Below are positions 8,776-64,000 of a DNA stretch of 64,000 bases, piece after piece (position 1 is the first letter of the stretch; each line of letters begins with the position of its first letter). This stretch comes from a virus, in IMG/VR virus record IMGVR_UViG_3300010413_000017, positions 1 to 64,000 of that record; one strand, written 5' to 3'. The position numbers and the translations under genes are program-made. Below the pieces are notes generated by a model. That model worked only from the letters and a program-made list of their open reading frames with translations, had not been told where the DNA came from and made no database searches.

Positions 8776-11700
8776 ATGGCAGACGTTGCTGAACTTCGAC
8801 TTAGAATTAAAGCTCAAGCAGAACAGCTTCGCGAAGTACGTAGCCAGTTTAAGCTCTTACAGAAAGAGCTTCGAGCTTCGCAAAGCGCGTTTCAACAAGC
8901 CGCTGCTCAGGCCGAACGGTTTAAGGCTAGCGCTCAGAAAAGTCAGGCTCAAGTCCAAGCGCTCAGGCTCCAAATGAAGGGGCTAAACAACTCTATGCGT
9001 CAAAGTAAGGCGGCCTCAGAGGAGTTCAACAATAGCCTTTTGAAGTTTGGTCGTACCTTAGCCTCTTTTGCTGCCGTTTTTTACACGCTAAAGAATCTGT
9101 TAGGAGTTTTTAGGTATGGTATTGAGTTTAATAAGGTCATAGAAGACTCCAAAATTGGGCTGACAGCTTTGATTGCGGCAACTCATGACTACACAGACGC
9201 GACTGGGAAGACTGTAACAGGGATGACAGCGTTCAACGCCGCTCAAGAGGACGCAATCGGGCTACAGAAAGAGTTGAGAGTTGCGGCCCTGCGGACGGCG
9301 GCCACATATGAAGAGCTTGTTTATGCCCTCCAACAAGCCTTTGTACCTGCTACAGGAGCTGGGTTTCAACTAGACCAGTTGGTGGACTTTGCTCAACGTT
9401 TCGCTCAAATCATGCAAGTTGTAGGTATCCCGATGAACCAAATCGGGGAGGAGATGCGGAGCTTCTTAACAGCTACAGGTTCTCTGCGTACAACTCGAAC
9501 TTTGCCATTCTTTGAAGGACTTGGCTTGGGTCGCAAGGAAGTTAAAAAGCTGTTGGCCGAAGGCAAGCTTGCAGAAGAGTACTTTAAACGTACTTGGGCT
9601 GTTCAAATGATGGCGGCAGAGGCGTCTAAAACATGGACAGTATCCCTCTCAAACTTACAAGACGCTCTTCAGAATGTGATGGGGATTGGAACAGTAGAGA
9701 CGTTTGAGTTCCTAAAACAGACATTCTTGGATTTGACTAACTACGTGTTGCAGTATGATACGGCTACTCGGCACCTCTCTTTTAATCCAGCTGTGGTAGA
9801 CGCTGTCAGGGAACTCGATAGACGTATGGCTAACCTGCTTCTACGCACACGTGAGTTTATTGAAGCGCTAGCTAGGCTTAGAAACGAGTATCCTGTCGTA
9901 GCTCGCACAGCGTTTGAGATAGGTGACCTAGTCATCAATGTCGCGGCACTGGGGTTTGCATTCACAACAATTACTGGCTTTTTCAGATGGTTAGGAAGGA
10001 TGTCCTTTGTTAGACCATTCGAGATGGCGTACAACGCGTTCATGCGGTTTATTGCACTGTGGAAGAGATTGCCTGTTGTTGGGCGTGCTTCTCTTGTTGT
10101 GATAGGTGCTCTTTTAATCTATACGTTCAAAGACGCGATTGCAACTGTTGCACAGATGTTTTGGAACTGGCTAAAAGAGTTCCCCGTCTACGGTAAAACG
10201 ATTGGGGAGTGGGCCGAGGGCGTTAAACGTTATATTATTTTACAGTTCGCCAAGTTGGGGATTGACCTACCCGTTCTTTTGGAAAACATAGGATGGGCCG
10301 CCGGGAAAGCGTATAAAAAAGGTTGGGACGCGTCTGTTAAGGTCGAACAAATCAGGAAAGGTATAGTTCAGCGTGTTAAGGATTTTTATAGGTGGGAACT
10401 AGAAGGGGCTTTATGGATAATCGAAACTATAAAAAAGAAATTAACTGAGGCGTACCAGACGCGCCCTGATGTTGGGCAGTTACAACTTCCACGTATTAGC
10501 GCCACCCTTTTCGGTGTTGATGAGTTTGTAAGTGATGTTGAGACAGAGTGGGTTAGACTTAAGGACATCTGGAATGCTTTGTTGGAGGGATTGAAGACAA
10601 GCTGGGGGAACTTTACTAGTGCAGTAGAACGTGAGTGGGGAGACACCATTGATAGTTGGATTCGGGGTGTTAAACAGTTTGGAACTGATATGGTTAACTT
10701 GATTTGGCGGGCGTGGGAAGAGATAAAAAGCTGGCTTCCCTTTAGAATTCCTATAGAGTTGGATTTTTCTCTGCCAGATATTAACAAAATCATGGAACGT
10801 TCAAGGAAAGCTCTTGGATTAATGACTAAGGAGGAACAACAAAGAAAGATTGCTTCACTGAAGCCGATGGTGGGGCATGGCACAGAACTTGAGTACTTCA
10901 CAGGTCCTGAGCCGTTTTCTATGACGTGGACAGATTTGCTGAAAGGGCATGGATTGAAGCGTAAACCGAAGTCCGACGTAGGTCTAGGAGGGACAGGTGG
11001 AGGAAAAGGCGGAAAAGGCGGTGAAGCTGATAAAGAGAGTCGTCGTCTTCTGTCTTTGTATGACTCAATTTTGAAGCAATATTTAAGTCTCACTGAATCT
11101 ACATACGACGCAGAAGTTAGAAAACACAAAGAGATGATGGACAAAATCGTCGAAGGCAAAGAACGACAGGTAACGGCTGCGCAGGTAGTAGAGATGGAGG
11201 AGAAGCGTCATGCTGAAGCGGTTGCAAATATGCAACGTGATTACGACTTAATGGTTGCGAAGTCGTCTGGCGACAAGTTTGTAGAAATTGAGGAACAAGC
11301 CAAACAGTACATGGAGAAATGGGGGAACTTACAAGACAGAGATGTTGAAAAATGGGTTAAAGACTGGAAAACACGTCGAAAAGCCATGCTAGAGTTGGAG
11401 GGGCGCAACGATCTCCTTGCGGTCACAAATTCTATACTTAAGACCGCTGAAGACCTTACACCGAGTGTAAAGGCACAGTTAGACCTTCAGAAGCAACAAT
11501 TACTTGTCTCACAAGAAATTGAACGTAACGAGATGGAACGTAAGATTTTAAACGGTGACATAGATAAGACAATTAAAGATGAGTACCAGACACTTGTCCT
11601 TCAAAGGCAAGAACTAGAACGGCAAGTTCAGCTCCGTAAGGAATGGATGACCCAAGGTCCAATGGGCGGTATACGAGAAGGAATATACGAGAGAGTAGGA

Positions 11701-12702
11701 AAAGCAGATACATCGTCCGCGGAAGCAGCAAAAGAGTGGGTTTTGAGTCTGGAAGGGACAGTTACAGAGACAATTGCCGCCGGAATCGTTGGTGCCCTTA
11801 ACGGTTCTAGGACAGATTTCCAAAAGGTCGGGCGTGACATCGCTCAAGCTTTTGTTGAGCGCTCCATCAACATGTTGATGACTGAGTTGTGGAACGTCAT
11901 ATGGAGAGCTTTGGCTAACGCGTTCAATGCAACGATGCCAACGGCAGGCAACGCCATCACTCAGGCTACTACTACCGGTGGCCAAGTTTTGGTAACTTCC
12001 GGTATAAAAACAGGCGAGGCCATTTATCAGGGTTGTGCTAGAGGAGCAGCTGAATTTGACCGAGTGGTGGCCCAAGCCAACGTGAAAGGTGCGTCCAAGG
12101 GGATGTTCAAGAGTAGAGGTGGCGGAGGCGGGGCAGACGTTGAGGTCGAAGGCTTGCCCGGTGGAGATATTGCAGGGGCGAGACAGGCCGAGGGCGGCTT
12201 CTTCAAGGGATTTATTGACGGCTTTAAGAACATGTTTAAAACCATGTTCGATATGATGAAAAGTATGATGCAGGGACTAATGAAGATGCTTGGTGGGCTT
12301 TTAAAAAGCCTAGGTAACATCATCATGAAGCTTATCAGTAGCATAGTTAAAGGTATTGGTGGAATGTTCGGGGGTGGGATGCAATACGGTGGCTTTGTGA
12401 CAAGCCCGACTCTCGCTATGATAGGCGAAGCTGGTCCAGAGTTGGTTTTGCCTTTTAAGAAGGGAGGCAGAGGTAATATCAAACCGCTACCTGCCTATCT
12501 GGGTGATGGTGGAGATGTAAATGTCACAGTCATAAATGAAACAGGCGTCCCTGTCCAACCCGATGTTAAAATAAACGAGCGGGATATTATTGTTAGACTG
12601 AAACGTGAACTTGTGAGCGACATCAATCAGGGTGGAGACATTCCACGGGCGCTCAATCGCAACTATGTGATGAATCCAAGGCTGATGAGTAGGGGTGGAT
12701 AA
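8776..12702 (+). CDS. Tail tape measure protein
   Basis: At 1308 residues this is the longest gene in the window. An N-terminal coiled coil (LRLRIKAQAEQLREV, A..AERFKASAQKSQAQ) leads into hydrophobic helices at about 390-450. A long Lys/Glu coiled coil runs from about 760 to 960, followed by Met/Phe-rich amphipathic helices at about 1130-1190. The C-terminal motif GGFVTSPTLAMIGEAGPELV is typical of tape measure proteins. Length sets tail length: at about 0.15 nm per residue this implies a tail near 200 nm. Its stop overlaps the next start as TAATG. Confidence 0.92.
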   Translation: MADVAELRLRIKAQAEQLREVRSQFKLLQKELRASQSAFQQAAAQAERFKASAQKSQAQVQALRLQMKGLNNSMRQSKAASEEFNNSLLKFGRTLASFAAVFYTLKNLLGVFRYGIEFNKVIEDSKIGLTALIAATHDYTDATGKTVTGMTAFNAAQEDAIGLQKELRVAALRTAATYEELVYALQQAFVPATGAGFQLDQLVDFAQRFAQIMQVVGIPMNQIGEEMRSFLTATGSLRTTRTLPFFEGLGLGRKEVKKLLAEGKLAEEYFKRTWAVQMMAAEASKTWTVSLSNLQDALQNVMGIGTVETFEFLKQTFLDLTNYVLQYDTATRHLSFNPAVVDAVRELDRRMANLLLRTREFIEALARLRNEYPVVARTAFEIGDLVINVAALGFAFTTITGFFRWLGRMSFVRPFEMAYNAFMRFIALWKRLPVVGRASLVVIGALLIYTFKDAIATVAQMFWNWLKEFPVYGKTIGEWAEGVKRYIILQFAKLGIDLPVLLENIGWAAGKAYKKGWDASVKVEQIRKGIVQRVKDFYRWELEGALWIIETIKKKLTEAYQTRPDVGQLQLPRISATLFGVDEFVSDVETEWVRLKDIWNALLEGLKTSWGNFTSAVEREWGDTIDSWIRGVKQFGTDMVNLIWRAWEEIKSWLPFRIPIELDFSLPDINKIMERSRKALGLMTKEEQQRKIASLKPMVGHGTELEYFTGPEPFSMTWTDLLKGHGLKRKPKSDVGLGGTGGGKGGKGGEADKESRRLLSLYDSILKQYLSLTESTYDAEVRKHKEMMDKIVEGKERQVTAAQVVEMEEKRHAEAVANMQRDYDLMVAKSSGDKFVEIEEQAKQYMEKWGNLQDRDVEKWVKDWKTRRKAMLELEGRNDLLAVTNSILKTAEDLTPSVKAQLDLQKQQLLVSQEIERNEMERKILNGDIDKTIKDEYQTLVLQRQELERQVQLRKEWMTQGPMGGIREGIYERVGKADTSSAEAAKEWVLSLEGTVTETIAAGIVGALNGSRTDFQKVGRDIAQAFVERSINMLMTELWNVIWRALANAFNATMPTAGNAITQATTTGGQVLVTSGIKTGEAIYQGCARGAAEFDRVVAQANVKGASKGMFKSRGGGGGADVEVEGLPGGDIAGARQAEGGFFKGFIDGFKNMFKTMFDMMKSMMQGLMKMLGGLLKSLGNIIMKLISSIVKGIGGMFGGGMQYGGFVTSPTLAMIGEAGPELVLPFKKGGRGNIKPLPAYLGDGGDVNVTVINETGVPVQPDVKINERDIIVRLKRELVSDINQGGDIPRALNRNYVMNPRLMSRGG

Positions 12703-13724
12703 TGGGAGACAAAACCGACAATAATATTTTTTATAAGCCTGACTATAATGCAAGCGGGACCGGGGAAAAAGCCGCGTTTGACGCTGGGCTAGATATGGCG
12801 GACAAGATGATACTCCAAAGCGCTGCCCCCGGTGTTTTGGTTAATGGTAAACTGTCTGTTTCTTTTAGCTCAGGTACTTTGTATGTGGGTATCAAGACAG
12901 CTGACGGAGGAACTCCGTCTCCGACTAATCCCGTGTTTTGTAGGGTTGGGGCTAGGGTTGTAACAATAACTGCCGCCTTGGAGATGACAAAGACAGCCAG
13001 CGCATCGCTGGGGGCAGGCAACTCCTGGTTGCATTTGGCGCAACCTGCTATGAGTGGCTATGAAACGGACTTATTTGCCTATATAGGATATGATGAGATA
13101 GACGAAGAACCCACCCTATTTGTTTCGAGAAGTGGCTGGCACGACCGCCATGCTTTTAACTATGAAACCTCTGGGCACGGAGCGTTAACAAGCCAGACAT
13201 CTCTGCGTTCATATACAGGCGAAGAAATAGCAGTGTGCGGTAGATTTAATGCTATCCTAACGACTCCTAATGTTTGGTCGAGTCCTGCAACTCAAATTAT
13301 TATTCAAAAGCCGATTACTAACACACGTATGCTAGCGTGGAACCACATGATGTTTGCCCCCTATGGGGGGACCCTAGACCATACTTGGACTTTTTCCCTT
13401 TATCAAATGGAGGGTAAATTCTTTAACTACTATGTGTTCGGTTTCTTTGCCTATTCTGCGGCCCCTAACACATTAGCAAACTTCTTTGAGTTTACCTTGC
13501 CACTCTCATCTCAGTATCCAACTGCCTACATCTGGCAAGCGATGGGTAGGTACAAAGATTATGAAGCCGGTCCCGACCACGGAGTAGTGGTAGGTATATG
13601 TGAATATACAAACACACTACGTATTTGTAAACATACTTACGCGTCCTATAGCTTGGGAACTATTTTCCTAAGTTTTCATTTTAGACATTATATCCCAGGC
13701 ACTATAATTCACTTTGACTTATAA
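12702..13724 (+). CDS. Minor tail protein of unknown function, copy 1
   Basis: The 340-residue beta-rich protein begins MGDKTDNNIFYKPDYN and is closely similar over its whole length to the next gene (shared blocks include ILQSAAPGVLVNGKL, SRSGWHDRHAFN and GRFN). The two are a tandem duplication. They lie directly after the tape measure, where distal tail and tip-associated genes are found. VFCRVGARVVTI and WLHLAQPA..GYETDLFAYIGYDE suggest a carbohydrate-binding or jelly-roll-like fold, but I do not recognise the family. Start and tape-measure stop overlap by one base. Confidence 0.65.
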   Translation: MGDKTDNNIFYKPDYNASGTGEKAAFDAGLDMADKMILQSAAPGVLVNGKLSVSFSSGTLYVGIKTADGGTPSPTNPVFCRVGARVVTITAALEMTKTASASLGAGNSWLHLAQPAMSGYETDLFAYIGYDEIDEEPTLFVSRSGWHDRHAFNYETSGHGALTSQTSLRSYTGEEIAVCGRFNAILTTPNVWSSPATQIIIQKPITNTRMLAWNHMMFAPYGGTLDHTWTFSLYQMEGKFFNYYVFGFFAYSAAPNTLANFFEFTLPLSSQYPTAYIWQAMGRYKDYEAGPDHGVVVGICEYTNTLRICKHTYASYSLGTIFLSFHFRHYIPGTIIHFDL

Positions 13725-13733
13725 GGATGGGTA

Positions 13734-14753
13734 ATGGGCGACACAACTGAGAACAAAATTTTCTATAAACCAGACCACAATACCAGTGGAACTGGGGAGA
13801 AGGCATCTTTTGACGCTGGGTTAACATTGGCAGATAAGATGATTCTCCAAAGTGCTGCCCCAGGCGTTTTGGTCAACGGAAAACTAGCTGTCTCCTTTAA
13901 TTCCGGCACTCTATATGTAGGAATTAAAACAGCTGACGAAGGAACTCCGTCTCCGACCAATCCTGTATTTTGCAGAGTTGGAGCTAGGGTTGTAACAATA
14001 ACTTCTGCTCTAGAGATGAATAAAGCATCTAGTGGCCTAGGAGCAGGAAGTTCTTGGTTACATTTAGCACAACCTGCTACGAGTGGCTACGAGACAGATT
14101 TGTTTGCTTATATAGGATATGATGAAACAAACCAAGAGCCAATGTTGTTGGTTTCGAGAAGCGGATGGCACGACCGTCATGCTTTTAACTCCGAAACCTC
14201 TGGACGTGGTGCTTTAACCAGTCAAGCATCTTTAGCTACCTTTACAGGTGAAGATATTGCGGTATGTGGACGGTTTAATACCGTTCTTACTACGCCTAAT
14301 AATTGGTCTAGTCCGGCATCCCCATTGGTTGTCCAAAAACCCATTACCCAGACTCGTATGCTTAATTGGAACCCTATGTTTGTTGTCCCATACGGAGGTT
14401 CTCTGAGTCCCGGAACATATAACTTGGCTATTTACCAAATGGAAGGGAAATTTTTTAACTCTTATGTATTTGGTTACTTTAATTACTCAGCAGCCCCAAC
14501 TACCTTGGCAGACTATTTGGAACTTACCCTACCACATTCATCTCAGTCTCCAAATTTTTCTATTTGGCAAGCGCTGGGTAGGTACAGGGACTATGGGACG
14601 GGTGCTTATGGTATTGTGATAGGTATGTGTAGTGATACAAATACATGGCGGATACATAAGAGTGATTTAGCGTCATTCTCTCTTGGAACTATTTATTTGA
14701 GCTTTTATGTCCGACATTTTATTCCGGGTACTATATTTAAGTTTGACATATAA
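13734..14753 (+). CDS. Minor tail protein of unknown function, copy 2
   Basis: This 339-residue paralogue of the preceding gene is similar from end to end; copies are separated by 9 bases, with GGATGGGTA before the start. Differences cluster in loops and in the C-terminal third, as expected for duplicates diverging under selection, for example as two subunits of a tail-tip ring or alternative surface-binding proteins. It overlaps the next gene by one base (TAATG). Function is not identified from motifs. Confidence 0.65.
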   Translation: MGDTTENKIFYKPDHNTSGTGEKASFDAGLTLADKMILQSAAPGVLVNGKLAVSFNSGTLYVGIKTADEGTPSPTNPVFCRVGARVVTITSALEMNKASSGLGAGSSWLHLAQPATSGYETDLFAYIGYDETNQEPMLLVSRSGWHDRHAFNSETSGRGALTSQASLATFTGEDIAVCGRFNTVLTTPNNWSSPASPLVVQKPITQTRMLNWNPMFVVPYGGSLSPGTYNLAIYQMEGKFFNSYVFGYFNYSAAPTTLADYLELTLPHSSQSPNFSIWQALGRYRDYGTGAYGIVIGMCSDTNTWRIHKSDLASFSLGTIYLSFYVRHFIPGTIFKFDI

Positions 14754-48418: not shown

Positions 48419-48481
48419 TTTGTTCTCCTTTTCGTGTACAAAGTTGTCCGCCACGCCGAATCCGGTCAATCATATAAGGGG

Positions 48482-48552
48482 CAGGGGAATCTGGACTCGA
48501 ACCAGAAATGTGAGGTCCAAAACCTCACGTGTTACCTTTACACCATTCCCCT
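48482..48552 (-). tRNA. tRNA-Gln (TTG)
   Basis: A 71-base cloverleaf: acceptor AGGGGAA/TTCCCCT, D stem GTGT/ACAC, anticodon stem TGAGG/CCTCA with loop TTTTGGA (anticodon TTG), and T arm TCTGG-TTCGAGT-CCAGA. Discriminator G; CCA is not encoded. First of three tRNA genes in a cluster between the zinc-ribbon genes. Confidence 0.9.
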
Positions 48553-48560
48553 CTTTTAGT

Positions 48561-48637
48561 TGGTACGGGCAGAGGGATTCGAACCCCCGACAACGTGGCC
48601 CCAAACCACGCACTCTACCAGACTGAGCTATGCCCGT
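48561..48637 (-). tRNA. tRNA-Pro (TGG)
   Basis: A 77-base cloverleaf including encoded CCA: acceptor ACGGGCA/TGCCCGT, anticodon stem CGTGG/CCACG with loop TTTGGGG (anticodon TGG), T arm with GGGGG-TTCGAAT-CCC pairing. It lies 8 bases upstream of tRNA-Gln in the same direction, so the two are probably processed from one transcript. Confidence 0.93.
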
Positions 48638-48638
48638 A

Positions 48639-48758
48639 CTATCGTAGTAATCCACTGTCGAACAACTCAAGAATCCACTCTACGACCATGCTACCTACCA
48701 TGGCAGAGAGGAGTATGACAATTGTGACGATCAGGAAAAATCGTGTATAGTCTCTCAA
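48639..48758 (-). CDS. 39-residue membrane peptide inside the tRNA cluster
   Basis: A TTG-started frame (AAGGA about 9 bases upstream; another TTG lies two codons earlier) encodes a single hydrophobic helix (FFLIVTIVILLSAMVGSMVV) followed by EWILELFDSGLLR. It ends one base before tRNA-Pro. Hydrophobic composition and the ribosome site support it, but its location between two tRNA genes leaves doubt. Confidence 0.4.
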   Translation of the reverse strand: MRDYTRFFLIVTIVILLSAMVGSMVVEWILELFDSGLLR

Positions 48759-48760
48759 TT

Positions 48761-49006
48761 TCAACCGTCCTTGGAGCGGAACGAGGGATACGAACCCTCA
48801 TCTTTAGACGGGAAGTCTAACGTTTTACTTAAACTAGTTCCGCTTGGTTGTTCAATCGCTCGTTCGATGGCACACCTAACAAGAGGGATAAGTATGTCTA
48901 GACAACGTGTGCAATAGAGGTCAGGTAAATCGTAGCCTTGTTCAGCTAATGCAACAACATCGTCAATTAAGTCCCCGCAACCTTGGCAAAAAACATTTAT
49001 GGTCAT
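48761..49006 (-). CDS. Zinc-ribbon protein whose 3' end runs through a tRNA gene
   Basis: The 81-residue protein has CQGCGDLIDDVVALAEQGYD and LYCTRCLDILIPLV, a normal small zinc ribbon. The last 27 residues are read from the tRNA-Gly gene and its flank, on the same strand, before a stop is met. The original protein probably ended near ERAIEQ, and a tRNA took the place of its 3' end. The start ATG overlaps the resolvase-like stop (ATGA). Confidence 0.6.
   Translation of the reverse strand: MTINVFCQGCGDLIDDVVALAEQGYDLPDLYCTRCLDILIPLVRCAIERAIEQPSGTSLSKTLDFPSKDEGSYPSFRSKDG
48772..48843 (-). tRNA. tRNA-Gly (TCC)
   Basis: A 72-base sequence with encoded CCA: acceptor GCGGAAC/GTTCCGC, anticodon stem TTAGA/TCTAA with loop CTTCCCG (anticodon TCC), T arm GAGGG-TTCGTAT-CCCTC and discriminator T, as usual for bacterial tRNA-Gly. 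The D arm is short (GTT TAAGTAA AAC). It overlaps the 3' part of the zinc-ribbon frame. Confidence 0.85.
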
Positions 49007-51037: not shown

Positions 51038-51243
51038 CAGTCTTCCTCTTTTTGTTTACTGCCCTGCGGATTTGTCATAGGCGTACCGTCAGGGAACAGT
51101 ACGAAATCTTCCTTTTGTTTAACCCAGTTGCACGGGCCATACTGACGTTCGAATTCGCGTATAAATTCGCGCCTGTCCTGTTCTTCAAGATGACGAAAGA
51201 ACGCGTCAGTCCACTTCTTCCAGAGCTTCTTAATTTTATCCAC
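51037..51243 (-). CDS. Small charged hypothetical protein
   Basis: The start is GTG 51243, overlapping the RNR stop, with GGAG 5 bases upstream; this gives 68 residues (MDKIKKLWKKWTDAFFRHLEE). The rest is charged with W and F (VKQKEDFVLFPDGTP). A longer upstream frame would overlap RNR without a ribosome site. No motif recognised. Confidence 0.5.
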   Translation of the reverse strand: MDKIKKLWKKWTDAFFRHLEEQDRREFIREFERQYGPCNWVKQKEDFVLFPDGTPMTNPQGSKQKEED

Positions 51244-53509
51244 AGTTACTCCATCCACAAAAAGGATTAGGACAAGTTTCACATCCCTCTTTTGCTACCA
51301 AGATTTCTCCGCAATCTGGGCACATCTTAGCGTCCCCAGGTAGTACTCGGGTTGAGCGGTAGATTTCTAATTCATCCTCTGGAGCACTGGGGCTGGCGGC
51401 AGGAATCGAACCCGCGACCGTCTCATTACAAGTGAGGCGCTCTACCTGCTGAGCTACGCCAGCCCGTGCTTGTTGCTCTTGGGTTTGTTGGCTTTGTAAC
51501 TTTCTCTTGCGAATGACTTTTGCAATGCCGTCAGGGGGGGATAAGACTTGTTCTCCATTGTGGAACATTACACGCTCGCCGCCGATGCCCCGCAACTGCT
51601 TCTCGATGTCTTCCCACGACGCTCCATACTTAAGTGCAAGTGTCCCGAGGCGTCCGACAGCGTCGTTCATCGCCGCAATAGTTCTACCTGATTTAGAAAT
51701 CTGAGTCCACATTTCTTTAAACCCTGTATTAGAGTCTTCAAACAGATGCACCCAAAGAGTGCCGTCCCCAGTCTTAACTCTATCTCTGGACCCAGCTAGA
51801 AATTCAGGGGTTTCTAGAGTTACAGAAGACGTATATGACGCATGTTCTGCCTTTTTAGTATGGCGTAGGCTGGGTGGGAGAGATTTGATAATATCCCTGT
51901 ATGCTTTTGTATCTCGTTGGGCTTCCTCTTCTCGACTCCCCTGTCGGTAGAAAGTGATGCCCTTGCACCCAAGTTTATACGCGAGCCTGAAAGCTCTGTC
52001 CACTTCCTCGATAGTTACAGAACTGGGAGCGTTGATAGTCTTGCTTACAGCATTGTCTGTATATTTTTGGAAAGCGGCCTGCATCTTAACATGATGTTCG
52101 ATTGGGACGTCCTTAGATTCGATGAAATAGTCGGGACATTTTATCCCTTCATTGATGGCTTGCCAGTCCTCGTATAGAGGATGCATTACGACCAGCGTTT
52201 CATCTATTGCTTTTTTCTCGTAGACGAATGAGAATACTGGCTCAATCCCCGAGCTACACCCGGCTATTAAACTGAGTGTGCCTGTAGGAGCTATCGTTGT
52301 AACCGTCCCGTTTCTGCGGTCAATAAGGGGTGTATCCTTGCGCCCAGAAGGTAAGTCTGCCCAAGCTGGGTATCCTTTTTCCTTAGCTAACTCTGTAGAA
52401 CAGAGATGAGCTACGTCATTAACGAATTGCATCACCTGTTCAGCTAGGACTAGAGCCGTTTCCATGTCATAACGTATTCGCATCTTAATAAGCATGTCAG
52501 CCCAGCCCATAACACCTAGCCCTATTTTGCGGAACTTTGTTGTTTCTCGTTTTATTTCGATAATTGGGTAATTATTAACGTCAATTACGTTATCAAGAAA
52601 ACGGACGGCTGTTTGCACAACCTCCATGAGCCTGTCCCACTGGATTGCGGGGAATATTGTTCCGGTATCTTCATTTAGTAAAGGCTCAACAAAATTACTT
52701 AGATTGATGCTTCCTAAAACACAAGACTCATAAGGGGACAACGGTTGCTCCCCACAAGGATTTGTGGCTGTAATCTTTTGATACTTTCCGACAGGGTTAG
52801 TCTCGTTAACCTTGTCTATAAAGACAATGCCCGGTTCTCCGTTCTTCCATGCGCCGTCGATTATACTCGCCCAAATGTAATCTACGTGTGGATACCCTGT
52901 CAAGGCGACCTTATCCATGAAATCATCTGTTAAAGCAACCGAGATATTGAAATGTCTCAACTCTCCTTCTTTTTCTTTGCACTTAATAAACTCGAGAACA
53001 TCTGGATGGTCACAGCGTAGAATACCCATCTGCGCTCCTTTGCGAACTCCTCCCTGCTCAATTATTTCTCCTACAACAAAGTCAAAGACACGCATAAATC
53101 CAACAGGTCCAGAGGCTTTGCCTTTTGTTGTACTAATTAATGAACCGCGCGGTCGGAGATTCGAGAAATCGTAACCTGTGCCTCCACCGAAAGCCTGAAC
53201 TTCGACTGCGTCTGTGAGAGCTTTAAAAATAGACTGACGAGAATCTTCGATTGGGATAACAAAGCAGGCGGCTAAGTTACCGTGATTGGCTCCTGCGTTC
53301 CGCAGGGTGGGGGAGTTGGGAAGAAAATCCAAATTGGACATTACTGAGTAGAACTCTTGTTCCCAGTAGTCCTTGTCCTTTTCCACAGAGGCGATATGGC
53401 GTGCTACACGCCTGAACATCTCTTCCGGTGCTTCAATAACGTTGCCACGTGCATCCTGCTGTAGAATCCGCTTTTCTAAAACTCGAATCGCGTTAGCCGA
53501 CAGATTCAA
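51236..53509 (-). CDS. nrdJ: Class II (adenosylcobalamin-dependent) ribonucleotide reductase with a tRNA gene inside
   Basis: The start is TTG 53509 with GGAGG 7 bases upstream; 757 residues. Key residues are Cys82 (AACFVIPIED), Cys252 in NPCGE (250-254) and Cys263 (SCVLGSINL), with GGGTGYDFSNLRPRGS before them. There is no ATP cone. It makes deoxynucleotides using cobalamin. Residues about 683-708 are encoded by a complete tRNA-Thr gene on the same strand. The frame stays open and continues into the C-terminal cysteine domain (CPDCG, CETC, CGWSNCG) needed for re-reduction. A terminator lies just before its ribosome site. Confidence 0.9.
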   Translation of the reverse strand: MNLSANAIRVLEKRILQQDARGNVIEAPEEMFRRVARHIASVEKDKDYWEQEFYSVMSNLDFLPNSPTLRNAGANHGNLAACFVIPIEDSRQSIFKALTDAVEVQAFGGGTGYDFSNLRPRGSLISTTKGKASGPVGFMRVFDFVVGEIIEQGGVRKGAQMGILRCDHPDVLEFIKCKEKEGELRHFNISVALTDDFMDKVALTGYPHVDYIWASIIDGAWKNGEPGIVFIDKVNETNPVGKYQKITATNPCGEQPLSPYESCVLGSINLSNFVEPLLNEDTGTIFPAIQWDRLMEVVQTAVRFLDNVIDVNNYPIIEIKRETTKFRKIGLGVMGWADMLIKMRIRYDMETALVLAEQVMQFVNDVAHLCSTELAKEKGYPAWADLPSGRKDTPLIDRRNGTVTTIAPTGTLSLIAGCSSGIEPVFSFVYEKKAIDETLVVMHPLYEDWQAINEGIKCPDYFIESKDVPIEHHVKMQAAFQKYTDNAVSKTINAPSSVTIEEVDRAFRLAYKLGCKGITFYRQGSREEEAQRDTKAYRDIIKSLPPSLRHTKKAEHASYTSSVTLETPEFLAGSRDRVKTGDGTLWVHLFEDSNTGFKEMWTQISKSGRTIAAMNDAVGRLGTLALKYGASWEDIEKQLRGIGGERVMFHNGEQVLSPPDGIAKVIRKRKLQSQQTQEQQARAGVAQQVERLTCNETVAGSIPAASPSAPEDELEIYRSTRVLPGDAKMCPDCGEILVAKEGCETCPNPFCGWSNCG
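51388..51463 (-). tRNA. tRNA-Thr (TGT) nested in the RNR gene
   Basis: A 76-base cloverleaf with encoded CCA: acceptor GCTGGCG/CGCCAGC, D stem GCTC/GAGC with loop AGCAGGTA, anticodon loop CTTGTAA (anticodon TGT), variable CGGTC, T arm GCGGG-TTCGATT-CCTGC. All conserved tRNA positions are present. One outer anticodon pair is C-A. It lies entirely in frame inside nrdJ, in the same direction. Confidence 0.93.
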
Positions 53510-58556: not shown

Positions 58557-59630
58557 TTATCGTTTGGTGAACCTGCTTTTGCGTTTTGGTACTACAGCGG
58601 CCTCCACTTCTAGCCAGTCCTTCTCGGCAAGCGTTTTGAGTTCTGCTAAGTCTTCGGGAGAGTCCTCAAGGAATGAAATGAATGACTGGCGTTTAAACGT
58701 CTTGTCGCCCCACTTAATCTCTTTGTCCCCATACATATAGTCAATGAGGGAATTAATATCGTCTATGCCGTAGTCGAACAAAATGGAAAACTCGGCCATA
58801 CGAAACGGTTTTGCTACTTTGTTGCGTTTGAAATTAGCCTTGACTGTCACCCCATATGTGCGTTTCTGTCCACGAAACGTTTTATCCAGCTTGCCGGTGT
58901 GGGCTAACCAGCATACTTGGTGTGTATAAAAATCGAGGGCTTTGCCGCCAGTTCTATAGTGCTTCTCACCAAACATCTGCCCAATCTTTTCTCGTACTTG
59001 AGAAATACAAATAAGTGTGGAATCCTTGCCTTGCATACTTTTACACAGATGATTGAAAAAACCTGAGCTAAAAAACTTAGCCTTCTCTGCGCCCATAGAA
59101 CCGGGGGCTTTCTGTTCGTCAAGTATTTTTTGCATTCTGTCAGCCGCCGCGTCTGGCACAAGTGCGTCGACTGAATCTATAACATAAATCAGACACTGCC
59201 CGGGTGTGAGAGCGTTAACGCGCCTAAGATAATCTGTCCCGAAATCCTCCGCGATGGGTGTCTGAATCCATGTGACAGCGCTAACGAAGTCATCTCCATA
59301 CATGTCTTCGATGGGGAAGTCCATGACTCCTTCAACGTTGTTGTAAACGATGAAAAGCTCTTTTATGGGCGGATAGAGGGCAGAGGGTTTCGCTTTTAAG
59401 TTGTAAAAAGCGTGGGCGCAAGCCTCCAAGGAGAGGAGCGTTTTCCCGCTTGAGCCGTCTCCGACAATGTTAACAATCCTACCTCTGGCCCAACCTCCAC
59501 TTAGACCTCTTTGGGAGGCGGCGAGGTTGAGCAGGGTCGAGCCCGTATCAATGAACTCGACCCTTTCACCCCGCTCCACTGGCTTCCGTGCCAGCTTCTC
59601 TGTTTCCTCGACGATTGCTGATTTAGCCAT
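58557..59630 (-). CDS. RecA/UvsX-like recombinase
   Basis: The 357-residue protein has Walker A GDGSSGKT (57-64), YVIDSVDAL as Walker B and LICISQVREKIG as the loop 1 region, with SMGAEKAKFFS before it. It lacks the RecA C-terminal domain and has a basic tail (PKRKSRFTKR). It drives strand exchange in recombination and replication. It shares one base with the ssDNA-binding gene. Confidence 0.87.
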   Translation of the reverse strand: MAKSAIVEETEKLARKPVERGERVEFIDTGSTLLNLAASQRGLSGGWARGRIVNIVGDGSSGKTLLSLEACAHAFYNLKAKPSALYPPIKELFIVYNNVEGVMDFPIEDMYGDDFVSAVTWIQTPIAEDFGTDYLRRVNALTPGQCLIYVIDSVDALVPDAAADRMQKILDEQKAPGSMGAEKAKFFSSGFFNHLCKSMQGKDSTLICISQVREKIGQMFGEKHYRTGGKALDFYTHQVCWLAHTGKLDKTFRGQKRTYGVTVKANFKRNKVAKPFRMAEFSILFDYGIDDINSLIDYMYGDKEIKWGDKTFKRQSFISFLEDSPEDLAELKTLAEKDWLEVEAAVVPKRKSRFTKR

Positions 59631-60622
59631 TATCTACGCCGTCTCGGAGTTGGACGGGGAGCCTCTTCCTCTTCATACTCCTCATCAGGTTGTACCTCTT
59701 CTCTTTCGGCTTCTTCTTCTGCGTACTCTGACTGCCAAAGTTCATGGCAAGGATTGTAGAGTTCGCATCCGGACAAGCACTCTTCATACGCCTCAAACGA
59801 TTCTCCAAAGACCCCACCATGAGGACAGGTAGGAGAACTCTTTTTGAAGCTTCTGGGAGTCCCCGGCACAGTTTCAGCCGCCATATCCTCAACTTCCAGA
59901 CCAGCCCAGAACGCCTTTTTGACCTGCTCATAGGTCGGAATGTCGAGCAGTTCATCTAAGGTCGGAACGTTGTCGATGATTGAGTCAGGAATATCATCTT
60001 CACGCTCTGAGAACTGAAAGCCAGTCCACTGTTGCTGAGTTTTACTGCCTTTGATTTGGAAGGCGATGGAGCGTCCCTCTTCGGCAGTCGGGTCAGCAAA
60101 GGCGACAACCCCGCCAGTCCGAGGCTTTTTGCAGATGTTCATGACGTTATTCTGGAAGAACCAATGAGCCACAGTCCAGATTTGAATGCCTTTAGACTCG
60201 TTGTCTCTGTCCAGAATGGCGTAGACTGAATACCGCTTCGGACGTGCACTATCAATCTGGCCTTTAACATCGTCAGAGGGATTGTCTACCCGCCTTAACT
60301 TCTCGCGGTATTCGCAGATAGGACAGTTCTTGTTGTATGTCCTAAAGAGGCAGATGAAATCGTCCTCATTAGGTCCGATAAACCTATGGACATAGAGGTC
60401 GACAAGGTAAGTGGGTTCTCCCTCGTTCTTCACAGGGTCATTTGGGCCTGCGAAGTAGGGGAGGACATCAACAAGATGTTCGCCAATATCCGGGTTGAAG
60501 ATTGACAAGCTACCTAACTTGTTTCTGTCCAGAATCCCCCTTCGCCTGTCTTCTCGGGTGTCATAGGTTTCCTGCGTGCGTTGGCGTAAGCCCGCACTAA
60601 GTGCTTTTCTGCGATCTTTCAA
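59630..60622 (-). CDS. ssDNA-binding protein (gp32-like)
   Basis: The start is TTG 60622 with AGGAG upstream. The 330-residue protein has a basic N-terminus, an OB-fold-like core with LPYFAGP, HRFIGP and a zinc site around CPICEY (Cys100, Cys103). A second Cys cluster lies at about 270-297 (CPHGG, ECLSGC, PC) and a long Glu-rich tail ends in PRPTPRRRR. This matches gp32-type proteins that coat ssDNA. It is located between recombinase and a mediator candidate. Confidence 0.8.
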   Translation of the reverse strand: MKDRRKALSAGLRQRTQETYDTREDRRRGILDRNKLGSLSIFNPDIGEHLVDVLPYFAGPNDPVKNEGEPTYLVDLYVHRFIGPNEDDFICLFRTYNKNCPICEYREKLRRVDNPSDDVKGQIDSARPKRYSVYAILDRDNESKGIQIWTVAHWFFQNNVMNICKKPRTGGVVAFADPTAEEGRSIAFQIKGSKTQQQWTGFQFSEREDDIPDSIIDNVPTLDELLDIPTYEQVKKAFWAGLEVEDMAAETVPGTPRSFKKSSPTCPHGGVFGESFEAYEECLSGCELYNPCHELWQSEYAEEEAEREEVQPDEEYEEEEAPRPTPRRRR

Positions 60623-60660
60623 ACGGTTTTCTCCTGTATTAAATTTGTGTAGTTAGGGTG

Positions 60661-61152
60661 TTACTGCGCCGGAACAGCTGAACGGCTAGGACGCTTTTCT
60701 CCAAGCGCCTCCTTGAGTTTCTTACTGACCTGTTCCTGAACAAGGTCAGCACCAACAGTGCTACGCGGCTCGGAGAAGTAGCTGGTCAGGTGCAAATCAA
60801 CCAGCTTTTCCAAGCCCTTGCGCTTGTGTTCCAAAGCCCGAACGACGGCTCGGAGCATATTCAGCTCGTATTTAGCGAGGATGATTTCCTCTTCCAGTTC
60901 TTGGAATTCGGGCTGTCTGGCGATGAAGTTTTTGAGGACAGCTTCTGTGACACGTTCTGTTGCAGTTTCTCTGAGTTGTTGGTCGAGCTGAGCGATTAAG
61001 ACATCTTTCCTGAGTTCCAAGCGTGAGACTACACGCTCGGCTTCGACTGCCTGCTCGCTATAGCTCAACACGTTGCTAGGATGTTTTACCCATTCGTCGT
61101 CGAGGGCAAATTTGTCAATGCTGACATCTGCCTCTACCTGAGATTTGTCCAT
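60661..61152 (-). CDS. Helical protein, recombination mediator candidate
   Basis: The 163-residue protein is almost all helix/coiled coil (QAVEAERVVSRLELRKDVLIAQLDQQ, FQELEEEIILAKYELNMLRAVVRAL). It starts with GGAGG upstream and directly precedes the ssDNA-binding gene. By position and shape it could load the recombinase as UvsY does in T4; sequence alone does not prove this. Confidence 0.55.
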   Translation of the reverse strand: MDKSQVEADVSIDKFALDDEWVKHPSNVLSYSEQAVEAERVVSRLELRKDVLIAQLDQQLRETATERVTEAVLKNFIARQPEFQELEEEIILAKYELNMLRAVVRALEHKRKGLEKLVDLHLTSYFSEPRSTVGADLVQEQVSKKLKEALGEKRPSRSAVPAQ

Positions 61153-61171
61153 AATTCCTCCTTACTTTATT

Positions 61172-61189
61172 ATAGCCTGTACCGGCTAT
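61172..61189. other. Hairpin between array 1 and the coiled-coil gene
   Basis: ATAGCC-TGTACC-GGCTAT, a perfect 6-pair stem, lies 36 bases beyond the last regular repeat of array 1. It may end or process the array transcript. It is weak as a terminator. Confidence 0.4.
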
Positions 61190-61225
61190 TTTGGAAGTTA
61201 AAAGTGTGAGTGCGCTCAGCTTCTT

Positions 61226-61459
61226 TGGGTTCCTTATTGTTTTTGGCTCGCTTTTGGTGTTTGGTGTCCTTGGACAAGATAGCTCGCTTGCCACTTTTGG
61301 GTTTCTTAGAGTCAATGGCTCGCTTTCCTCTGATGGGTTTCTTATTATAACTGGCTCGCTTGCCACTTTTGGGTTTCTTAACCTATAGGACTCGCTTCTG
61401 GTTAATGGGTTTCTTTATGCAGGTGGCTCGCTTATATCTGATGGGTGCCTTGGGCGTGT
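61226..61459. repeat. TIGR-like array 1 (36-base period, two alternating repeats)
   Basis: On the + strand repeat B (consensus TGGGTTTCTT) starts at 61226, 61262, 61298, 61334, 61370, 61406 and 61442, and repeat A (TGGCTCGCTT) at 61244, 61280, 61316, 61352, 61388 and 61424, each with exactly 36-base spacing. All gaps between A and B are 8 bases and differ, except gccacttt, which occurs twice (61290 and 61362). End repeats are degenerate. On the - strand the units read AAGAAACCCA-N8-AAGCGAGCCA-N8. Two spacers per 36-base unit is the hallmark of tandem interspaced guide RNA arrays, not CRISPR. Confidence 0.9.
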
Positions 61460-61463
61460 TGAC

Positions 61464-62492
61464 TTAAGCCACATCGTCAGGTGAAACAGACTCTCGTCCG
61501 GCCTCTACAGGAACCGGTGTAGCGTCATAAACCCAGCCACGTTCCTCTGGCATAATCGTTCTGTGCGGCCCGTCTAGAACTGCCTCTGCGTATAGAGGTG
61601 AAGTAGGTAATCCCAAAAGTGTTCTGCCTACATACCAATAGTCCGCAAGGAAGTGCTTCATAATGACACGCAGTGCGGCCATGTGCCTGTGATTAGGAAC
61701 GGTCTCTTTCCATGGTTTCTCGACAAGCCTGTGCCGACCGTTATGTAAGCCAAATGTCTTAACAAGTTTCTCAGAGTTATCCAACTTGGAGCGCGTTTTG
61801 TCGTACAGATAACCATACGCGCTACCTTTGTTCCTCTGTTTCATCTGTGAGTTAGCCATAGTGAAGAGAGCAGTCCGAAGAGACCTGTTACCACCACTAG
61901 GTTCCCCCGGAGTATAGCGGGCGTGGGCGGGAGTGTGCAGTCCAGTGTACCTCCACAGACTGGAGGCGTGCTTCGCCTTTGCCAGATCTATGTAGACAAG
62001 GCAGTAAGCTATGGTCACAAAGCCAACAGAATGTACTCCCAATGCGGCTTGCACCAACGGGTTCGTTTGGGCAATCTCGTTAACCGTTTTTTTGAGTGCG
62101 TGCGTACGCTTGCTCAACAGAGACGTTAATTGGTCGAGTTGTATAGACAGAAACTCGGCTGTTTCTGGGTTAAGAGTATCTGTACGCCTTCGATACGCGC
62201 GTAACTGATTGCCGATTTTGGTGTGGAGTTTCAAGACTTGGTTCCTGTCATCCACTTGGGCTTTGAGACGTTCAAACAGTTCAGGACGCTCCCGAAAGAT
62301 GCCATGGTGCCGCATGTGAGTGATGGGGTCTACCACGCATGTGTTATCGGGAGTATACCTTCCACCTTTGCTTTTGGGTTTCAGCCTGTGTGTGTCGAAG
62401 CTTTCAGTAGGTTCACCTAGTGGTTGTCCAGTAAATGCGTCAACTCCAAGTTGTTTCTCCTTAGTCGTACGTTTCAGTTCTTCTTTTGCCAC
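61464..62492 (-). CDS. TasH-like protein: HNH nuclease fused to a Nop/Transposase_20-like RNA-binding region
   Basis: The start is GTG 62492 with AAAGGAGAG upstream; 342 residues. The N-terminal HNH motif has His35 (FDTHRLKPKSKGG), Asn50 (TPDN) and His62-His63 (MRHHG). A helical linker at about 75-145 leads to a C-terminal region with ALGVHSVGFVTIA, LWRYTGLHTPA and GGNRSLRTALFTMAN, the pattern of the IS110 Transposase_20 / Nop guide-RNA-binding fold. Arrays flank it on both sides. In TIGR-Tas systems such proteins bind 36-base guides and the HNH domain is the presumed DNA-cutting part. The RuvC-like DEDD domain of IS110 is absent. Confidence 0.85.
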   Translation of the reverse strand: MAKEELKRTTKEKQLGVDAFTGQPLGEPTESFDTHRLKPKSKGGRYTPDNTCVVDPITHMRHHGIFRERPELFERLKAQVDDRNQVLKLHTKIGNQLRAYRRRTDTLNPETAEFLSIQLDQLTSLLSKRTHALKKTVNEIAQTNPLVQAALGVHSVGFVTIAYCLVYIDLAKAKHASSLWRYTGLHTPAHARYTPGEPSGGNRSLRTALFTMANSQMKQRNKGSAYGYLYDKTRSKLDNSEKLVKTFGLHNGRHRLVEKPWKETVPNHRHMAALRVIMKHFLADYWYVGRTLLGLPTSPLYAEAVLDGPHRTIMPEERGWVYDATPVPVEAGRESVSPDDVA

Positions 62493-62527
62493 GCTGTGCT
62501 CTCCTTTTGAGATTCGTTACTAAACGC

Positions 62528-62663
62528 TGGGTTTCTTCAAACTGATGGCTCGCTTAAGGTTTTTGGGTTTCTTGAGTATGCTGACTCGCTTTCCAATGTT
62601 GGGTTTCTTAGATGATGTGGCTCACTTGGTATTTATGGGTTTCTTTCAGGGCTTGGCTCTTAC
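62528..62663. repeat. TIGR-like array 2 (36-base period), between polymerase and tasH-like gene
   Basis: Repeat B (TGGGTTTCTT, invariant) starts at 62528, 62564, 62600 and 62636. Repeat A starts at 62546 (TGGCTCGCTT), 62582 (TGACTCGCTT), 62618 (TGGCTCACTT) and, degenerate, 62654. The seven 8-base spacers in + orientation are caaactga, aaggtttt, gagtatgc, tccaatgt, agatgatg, ggtattta and tcagggct. None equals a spacer of array 1. The array fills the space from 6 bases before the polymerase stop to the ribosome-site region of the tasH-like gene. Confidence 0.9.
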
Positions 62664-62668
62664 CTAGT

Positions 62669-64000
62669 TTATAGCCCGTTGGGGGCGTACTTCCCATCTA
62701 AAAACTCAGTATAGGGAACCTTTTTCTTAGTTGACCAAGGAGCGTCGATATCACACAACTCGAACTCAACTTCGAGTGGCACGTTACACCAAGAATGTAC
62801 TTGCAACGCCCTTTCAGACATAATCCAGTTCGCCATAGTCACAACTCGATGAAGTTCCTCTGGCTGAACACTCAGCAAAATACAATCGTGAATCTGGCCG
62901 AGGATAACTGAACTTAGCCTGTCTTTTTTTAGAAACTTGCTGAGTTCTATCAGGCTCCACAGTAAGATATGAAAAGCTGTTCCCTGAATTGGAGTGTTCA
63001 AAATCTCATTCCTAGCCAAGTAGCCTTGGCGTCTGAACCCATATTTGAGGGGTACACGACCGGTCTTATAATAGCGTGCTACCCATTTTTCTTTCCATTT
63101 GGCGTAGGTAGAGAACTGTTTCCAGAACCTGTTCTCTTCTGCTTGAATGTGCTCTGTGAAAACATCCAAAGAAGTAAGCTTCTGGTTCATTAAATGTTCT
63201 CGTAAAGAAGAGCCGTCGGCAAGGAGTAGTTGCTCTCCGTCTTTCCAGAGTTTCTCAGCACAAGGTCTGTACCACGAGCCGTATAACTGAGCAAAAACAA
63301 ACGCTCCTTTAACAAGATTGCGTACAGCTTTTGTAATCTGGTCTCGGGGTAATAGGTATACTCGTTCGGTCTGGTCCCTGTGCATATCTGACGTGGGGTC
63401 TTTACAGTAACGAATAAGTTCAGGGTCTTGGGTGAACGTTGCCGCAATCCGGACTTCGTGCATTCCAAAGTCTATTTCAAGAAGTTGTTGGCCGTGATGA
63501 GGAAACATACCGCTTCGCACAAGCTGAGTCATACGCTCGTCGCGAGCTGGAATGTTTTGTAAATTAGGACGGCTCGATGAACCTCGATATGTTCTTACTC
63601 TGTGAAGATGGAAAAAGGGATGTAAAGTCTCCTTATAGATTTCACGGATAATCCCTTTTATATAGGTAGATTCAGTTTTAGTTGCACTACGGAGTCGAGT
63701 TACATCAATCAAGAAAGAGCGTAGACTCTGTTGTGGAAGAGTCCGAGAGAACTCCTCAATGTCCTCTTTGTCTAAGGTGGGATTTCCCTTCGCTGACTTC
63801 TTCCTAGGTTCGATCCCAACATAGTCAAAGAGAAGAGTTTTGAGTTGTGGAGCAGACCCGGGGTTAAGTGGAACGCCTGTCTTCTTTTCCCATAACCGAG
63901 CGTAGTGAGAGTCCATGACTCTCGCTTTTGCGGCCTTGCTCTCCTCTGAGATAGTGGTAAACGCTTCTTGGAATACCTCAGAGGAAGCTCTAAAGCCTGT
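62669..64000 (-). CDS. polA: DNA polymerase I family polymerase, 5' end outside the window
   Basis: The frame is open to the right edge with no stop, so ATG 63916 is probably internal. Family A motifs are motif A LLEIDFGMHEVRIAA, motif B RNLVKGAFVFAQLYG and motif C GQIHDCILL, where the usual HDE is HDC. RPNLQNIPARDERM precedes motif A. Only the palm/fingers/thumb part is visible; any exonuclease domain lies beyond the window. It replicates the phage genome and is followed by array 2. Confidence 0.9.
   Translation of the reverse strand, partial: TGFRASSEVFQEAFTTISEESKAAKARVMDSHYARLWEKKTGVPLNPGSAPQLKTLLFDYVGIEPRKKSAKGNPTLDKEDIEEFSRTLPQQSLRSFLIDVTRLRSATKTESTYIKGIIREIYKETLHPFFHLHRVRTYRGSSSRPNLQNIPARDERMTQLVRSGMFPHHGQQLLEIDFGMHEVRIAATFTQDPELIRYCKDPTSDMHRDQTERVYLLPRDQITKAVRNLVKGAFVFAQLYGSWYRPCAEKLWKDGEQLLLADGSSLREHLMNQKLTSLDVFTEHIQAEENRFWKQFSTYAKWKEKWVARYYKTGRVPLKYGFRRQGYLARNEILNTPIQGTAFHILLWSLIELSKFLKKDRLSSVILGQIHDCILLSVQPEELHRVVTMANWIMSERALQVHSWCNVPLEVEFELCDIDAPWSTKKKVPYTEFLDGKYAPNGL

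What the first reader, a model, noticed from the sequence alone, without database searches (positions are those of the whole stretch)
62528..62663. Array 2: separate spacer set upstream of the tasH-like gene
A second array with the same two repeats but seven different spacers lies in the 176-base gap between polA and the tasH-like gene. Two arrays of one repeat type around one gene suggest either separate expression or array splitting by insertion of the gene. B repeats are invariant while A repeats vary (TGACTCGCTT, TGGCTCACTT), so A and B probably have different roles in the guide.
Basis: partly seen in the sequence, partly recalled or inferred. Interest (0 to 1): 0.75.

Follow-up and report, generated by a model that had tools for sequence, protein, structure and literature searches.

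The report
Second TIGR guide array beside tasH
This phage carries a known kind of RNA-guided DNA-cutting system (TIGR-TasH), and the stretch in question is one of its two guide banks, an ordinary layout; closely related phages, however, can carry largely different guides, which suggests that the guides change quickly.

Summary
The array is real: a TIGR guide array on the minus strand (the tasH strand), about 62515-62658. It encodes four 36-nt guides (eight 8-nt spacers, not seven) in the 176-nt gap between a UDG-PolA fusion gene and tasH. The neighbour is a true TasH (PDB TasH E 5.6e-82; predicted fold closest to TasH-tigRNA-DNA complexes; NCBIfam TIGR_Tas_endo just above cut-off). Array 1 (seven guides) starts inside the tasH stop codon. 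Arrays on both sides of tasH are common: 12 of 24 records examined, all arrays on the tasH strand. Both variant edges of array 2 keep their pairs as G-U wobbles. In two pairs of close relatives spacers are replaced, internally or entirely, while repeats and flanks stay 87-98% identical; this suggests turnover by exchange at the repeats. No natural target was found; matches are at chance level, with a mispaired control. Verdict: new member of a known kind, of moderate interest for how such arrays evolve.

The parts
62515..62658 (-). Array 2: four predicted 36-nt guides (62658-62623, 62622-62587, 62586-62551, 62550-62515), each half-edge, 8-nt spacer A, 10-nt loop, 8-nt spacer B, half-edge
61464..62492 (-). 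tasH, 342 aa: N-terminal HNH plus Nop-like domain; residues 326-342 predicted disordered
61213..61464 (-). Array 1: seven predicted 36-nt guides; the first half-edge (AGTCA) begins on the last base of the tasH stop codon
62669..64000 (-). C-terminal part of a UDG-PolA fusion gene (903 aa, to 65380 in the contig), directly upstream of array 2
60661..61152 (-). UvsY-like protein gene, downstream of array 1 (weak match)
   Evidence: phrog_231 E 1.5e-4
59630..60622 (-). gp32-like single-strand DNA-binding protein gene
   Evidence: PF08804 E 8.9e-8
58557..59630 (-). UvsX/RecA-like recombinase gene

Best explanation
Array 2 is the upstream guide bank of a two-array TIGR-TasH system inside a phage replication/recombination gene cluster (UDG-PolA, array 2, tasH, array 1, UvsY-like, gp32-like, UvsX-like). 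Working, as inferred: the minus strand is transcribed across the cluster; TasH binds the box C/D-like repeats; a host RNase cuts each edge repeat at about AAGCG^AGCCA and frees up to four 36-nt tigRNAs from array 2 and seven from array 1; a TasH dimer holds one tigRNA, spacer A pairs with one strand of a DNA target and spacer B with the other, and the HNH domains cut both. Shown here: protein identity, array anatomy, strand, edge/loop assignment, spacer replacement between close relatives. Taken from published TasR/TasH work: expression, processing, cleavage. Inferred only: that the guides are aimed at competing mobile DNA; spacer turnover and the lack of sites in the phage's own contig fit this better than regulation of its own genes.
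For: TasH identity: PDB TasH E 5.6e-82, fold match to 9w04 TasH-tigRNA-dsDNA, NCBIfam TIGR_Tas_endo 102.3 against 100 bits. Array anatomy: 36-nt units with half-edges at both ends, as the paper describes for TIGR arrays, with 16 variable nt per guide as it reports for SpTIGR. Edge pair 4-7 present in 242 of 254 edges but 51 of 299 loops. All arrays on the tasH strand in 24 of 24 records. Spacer turnover in two pairs of relatives. No site with at most 1 mismatch for the 11 own guides in the own contig.
Against: No RNA or biochemical data for this locus. The last half-edge of array 2 is degenerate (TAACG), so guide 4 may not be processed; the paper found processing only with complete edges, so first and last guides are uncertain. 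No terminator-like site on the minus strand at 60500-64000. No natural target found. In the paper a TasR system in E. coli did not stop phage or conjugation. The NCBIfam score passes only narrowly.
Confidence: 0.82

Rival explanations
1. One ancestral array was split in two when tasH inserted into an edge repeat; array 2 and array 1 are its halves.
For: Repeats of the two arrays are alike, and the inner ends are complementary halves of an edge (TAACG before, AGTCA after tasH).
Against: The same half-edges bound outer ends; one-sided layouts in 12 of 24 records; seven mini-arrays between genes in G021; arrays of one locus share repeats in any case because they serve one protein.
Confidence: 0.08
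2. Array 2 is a decaying remnant that no longer makes guides.
For: The last half-edge is degenerate.
Against: Exact 36-nt register, and edge variants that keep their pairs; upstream arrays, several of them short, occur in 14 of 24 records.
Confidence: 0.05
3. The guides act on the phage's own DNA or host genes (regulation) and not on rivals.
For: Arrays sit in a replication cluster; the target is unknown.
Against: No near-exact site for the 11 own guides in the own contig; spacers are replaced between phages that are about 90% identical, unlike regulators of conserved genes. Host genomes were not searched.
Confidence: 0.15

Closest known systems
TIGR-TasH of Salicola phage CGphi29 (SpTIGR; Faure et al. 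2025, PMC12045711; record NC_020844, L018/W01 here)
   Same: TasH 45.5% identical over 94% of the query; edge AAGCGAGCCA identical, loop AAGACAACCA similar, 8-nt spacers, 36-nt units, array downstream of tasH
   Different: Only a downstream array was detected there, ending in a sequence that looks like a terminator hairpin with a T run; tasH lies among head genes; here an upstream array too, in a replication cluster
TIGR-TasR (TaTasR, PDB 9mty)
   Same: Nop-like core, dual-spacer 36-nt guide
   Different: RuvC in place of HNH; repeats start with UG; 9-nt spacers (passages)
tasA-tasParB loci with arrays upstream, downstream and between the genes (same paper, passage seen)
   Same: Arrays in intergenic gaps of a tas operon
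   Different: TasA has no nuclease; the partner gene is parB-like
IS110/IS621 RNA-guided transposases
   Same: Related Nop-like RNA-binding domain (8wt6/8wt9); weak transposase labels
   Different: NCBIfam IS110 29.1 against cut-off 140 bits; here an HNH domain and dual-repeat arrays

Membership tests
TIGR-Tas, TasH type | Tas protein: Nop-like domain with N-terminal HNH | tested here: met
   conserved D33, N50, H59, H63 in the HNH region (assignment as HNH residues is mine, by recall)
TIGR-Tas, TasH type | Array of two alternating 8-12-nt repeats with short spacers, 36-nt units, next to tas | tested here: met
TIGR-Tas, TasH type | Edge and loop share motifs (CCA-type box C); edge has an extra pair | tested here: met
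TIGR-Tas, TasH type | Truncated edges at array ends (typical) | tested here: met
   the 3' half of array 2 is degenerate
TIGR-Tas, TasH type | Rho-independent terminator after the array (typical, not defining) | tested here: inconclusive
   no minus-strand site in a simple consensus scan of 60500-64000
TIGR-Tas, TasH type | 36-nt guides bound by Tas; guided DNA cleavage | not testable with these tools
   needs RNA sequencing and biochemistry
CRISPR-Cas | One repeat of about 25-36 nt with spacers of similar size | tested here: not met
   two 10-nt repeats, 8-nt spacers
CRISPR-Cas | cas genes nearby | not tested
   PADLOC was not run
IS110 transposon | IS110-type transposase above the family cut-off | tested here: not met
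   29.1 against 140 bits; Pfam Transposase_20 15.6 against 21.3 bits

The most novel reading that the evidence does not exclude
TIGR arrays need no spacer-acquisition machinery: they are recombining spacer banks in which whole guides and half-guides are exchanged between phages at the short edge and loop repeats, anywhere in the array, so that spacers A and B are reshuffled as pairs and singly. Arrays 1 and 2 would be two such banks turning over independently in one gene cluster.
Probability: 0.3. Interest if true: 0.75.

Novelty: new member of a known kind. Interest (0 to 1): 0.42.

Why it matters
The TIGR-Tas paper leaves open what the natural targets are and how arrays arise, last and grow. 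The window adds a clean two-array TasH locus. Two pairs of close relatives show guides replaced inside an array or entirely, rather than added at one end, which makes the second question testable by sampling more such pairs. The targets stay unknown.

Tried and rejected
Targets in related phages: 278 distinct guides (of 299 parsed; guides with a spacer not 8 nt long and repeats of the same pair were dropped) against 1.1 Mb from 24 records with arrays masked, four arrangements by eleven gaps, null of 12 re-pairings within records. The arrangement I expected (5'-A, 2 nt, reverse complement of B) gave 22 sites with at most 1 mismatch against 11.8 (sd 3.8). An unexpected arrangement gave 23 against 10.2. 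Among 44 combinations I claim no signal.

Targets in IMG/VR: the four array-2 guides, exact, gap 2 only, hit 11, 74, 22 and 16 contigs, that is 7, 36, 11 and 7 independent sites. The high count of guide 2 comes from its A half: a mispaired control with that half hit 78 contigs (not grouped). The seven guides of array 1, other gaps, hosts, plasmids and metagenomes were not scanned.

Other dead ends: relatives by the polA protein, none. TasH in genome contigs: 12 pattern matches, none confirmed. Solitary guides outside arrays in 24 records: 7 sites with at most 2 mismatches against 1.3 expected from mononucleotide shuffles; one of them lies directly beside the upstream array of its record; none in this contig. 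Rfam on 60600-63000: no match at E up to 1. The Microcystis phage hit was not followed.

Full report
What is there. On the minus strand, between the stop of a UDG-PolA fusion gene (62669) and the start of a 342-aa gene (62492), lies an array of two alternating 10-nt repeats, AAGCGAGCCA-like and AAGAAACCCA-like, with 8-nt spacers in 36-nt units. With the half repeats at both ends there are four units, 62658-62515. In the window the longest phased run of the motif is 9; 20 base shuffles reach at most 2. A second array of seven units, 61464-61213, follows the gene, and the two arrays share no spacer. No further array was found in the 73,860-base contig.

The protein. It matches PDB TasH over residues 14-323 (E 5.6e-82) and passes NCBIfam's TIGR_Tas_endo cut-off narrowly (102.3 against 100 bits). 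The AlphaFold model (mean pLDDT 86.9, 19 sequences) matches the TasH-tigRNA-dsDNA cryo-EM complex best. Pfam and PHROGs give only transposase labels. So this is TIGR-TasH, described by Faure et al. 2025 (PMC12045711; I read sections 4-7, 9, 10, 25 and the figure legends, and passages of others; figures and supplements not seen).

Relatives. Two scans of IMG/VR gave 22 loci; the phage collection gave Salicola phage CGphi29 (two records of one phage) and a weaker Microcystis phage hit. A scan of genome contigs gave none. With the window these are 24 records (the Microcystis phage not included), and all 24 have at least one array, always on the tasH strand: 12 on both sides, 10 downstream only, 2 upstream only. 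Some records are fragments (G012 and G014 for example), so absences are uncertain. My array finder used repeat models written after seeing these loci; a model-free autocorrelation scan of the first 16 related loci and the window shows period 36 beside tasH in each. The paper says that arrays lie upstream and/or downstream, so two arrays are ordinary.

Edge and loop. Over 45 arrays the first repeat keeps positions 6-10 of the A-type repeat (41-45 of 45) and the last keeps positions 1-5 better (29-39 of 45) than 6-10 (17-31 of 45). The A type is therefore the edge, with a predicted cut AAGCG^AGCCA. It has the extra pair 4-7 expected of edges: 242 of 254, within-record null mean 238.1, reached in 9 of 1000 shuffles; loops lack it (51 of 299). 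The pair 3-8 is common in both (235 of 254 edges, 282 of 299 loops), but in edges shows no within-record covariation (897 of 1000 shuffles reach it). G-U outnumbers A-C at edge 3-8 (55 against 14), which fits RNA from the tasH strand. The first edge of each array was left out of these edge counts.

Turnover of spacers. G001 and G002 align over 36.6 kb at 92%; their tasH genes agree at 852 of 930 positions and the stretch after the array at 534 of 563. Their arrays (15 and 16 guides) share eight guides in the same order: five identical, two with one change, one with spacer A kept and four differences in B. Between these stand unrelated guides: two against three, one against one, three against one (in the last set one B spacer may be distantly alike). 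G014 and G015 agree at 258 of 287 and 602 of 690 flanking positions and at 78 of 80 repeat positions, but at 23 of 64 spacer positions: all four guides differ. Eight spacers recur within six records, most with another partner; in this window AAAGTGGC is spacer B of guides 3 and 5 of array 1 (about 2.7 identical pairs expected by chance among all 598 spacers over all records). This fits exchange of whole and half units at the repeats and does not look like growth at one end. Two record pairs are a lead, not proof.

Targets. From the paper's C-5 rule and its 8-nt 3' overhang I derived the target order 5'-spacer A, reverse complement of spacer B-3' (my derivation). No arrangement gave a convincing excess. 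None of the 11 own guides has a site with at most 1 mismatch in the own contig, array regions masked. Exact scans of IMG/VR with the four array-2 guides gave chance-like hits, judged by one mispaired control. The natural targets remain unknown.

Context. The genes on both sides are on one strand: UDG-PolA, tasH, a UvsY-like protein (weak), a gp32-like protein, a UvsX-like recombinase. Next to tasH or its arrays in relatives I found PolA (G016, G020), RecA (G010), 5'-3' exonuclease (G015), a primase-like protein (G003), a helicase (G001) and gp32 (G021). I scanned ten proteins chosen by eye, so this is no test of enrichment; in Salicola phage tasH lies among head genes.

A side observation. In 9 of 24 records (22 have a downstream array) the first half-edge of the downstream array starts inside the tasH stop codon, here TA|AGTCA; one upstream array (G006) does so with another gene. 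If the first guide is cut there, maturation would remove the stop codon of the mRNA it came from. Array 2 ends 7-9 nt before the likely Shine-Dalgarno sequence of tasH. A feedback on TasH levels is possible (I would say 0.1), but the paper found processing only with complete edges, and tight packing explains it as well.

Verdict. What is worth following is the change of guides between close relatives. On print: searches found only the 2025 paper as a primary TIGR-Tas study in the held library; many journals are not held, and the TasH structures show that other work exists.

Noticed in passing
window 61464-61466 and eight other TasH records: The tasH stop codon overlaps the first half-edge of the downstream array (9 of 24 records).
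   Followed up: partly
G021 (L070) 9400-14678: Seven mini-arrays (20 guides) are scattered between genes over 5.3 kb around tasH, including after a gp32-like gene.
   Followed up: partly
L006 2983-3924 (record G004): This TasH has R and Q where its relatives have the two HNH-region histidines (H59, H63), so its nuclease may be dead although its array is regular.
   Followed up: no
window 62669-64000, to 65380 in the contig: The PolA gene carries an N-terminal uracil-DNA glycosylase domain (PF03167, E 2.3e-11).
   Followed up: no
window 61464-61525: The window's TasH runs about 20 residues past the end shared by its relatives; the tail is predicted disordered.
   Followed up: no
window 1516-1669: A 66-nt tandem repeat, 2.3 copies, 70% matches.
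   Followed up: no
window 51388-51463: A predicted tRNA-Thr lies inside the long reading frame 51236-53509 that matches a ribonucleotide reductase large subunit; three more tRNAs lie at 48480-48843.
   Followed up: no
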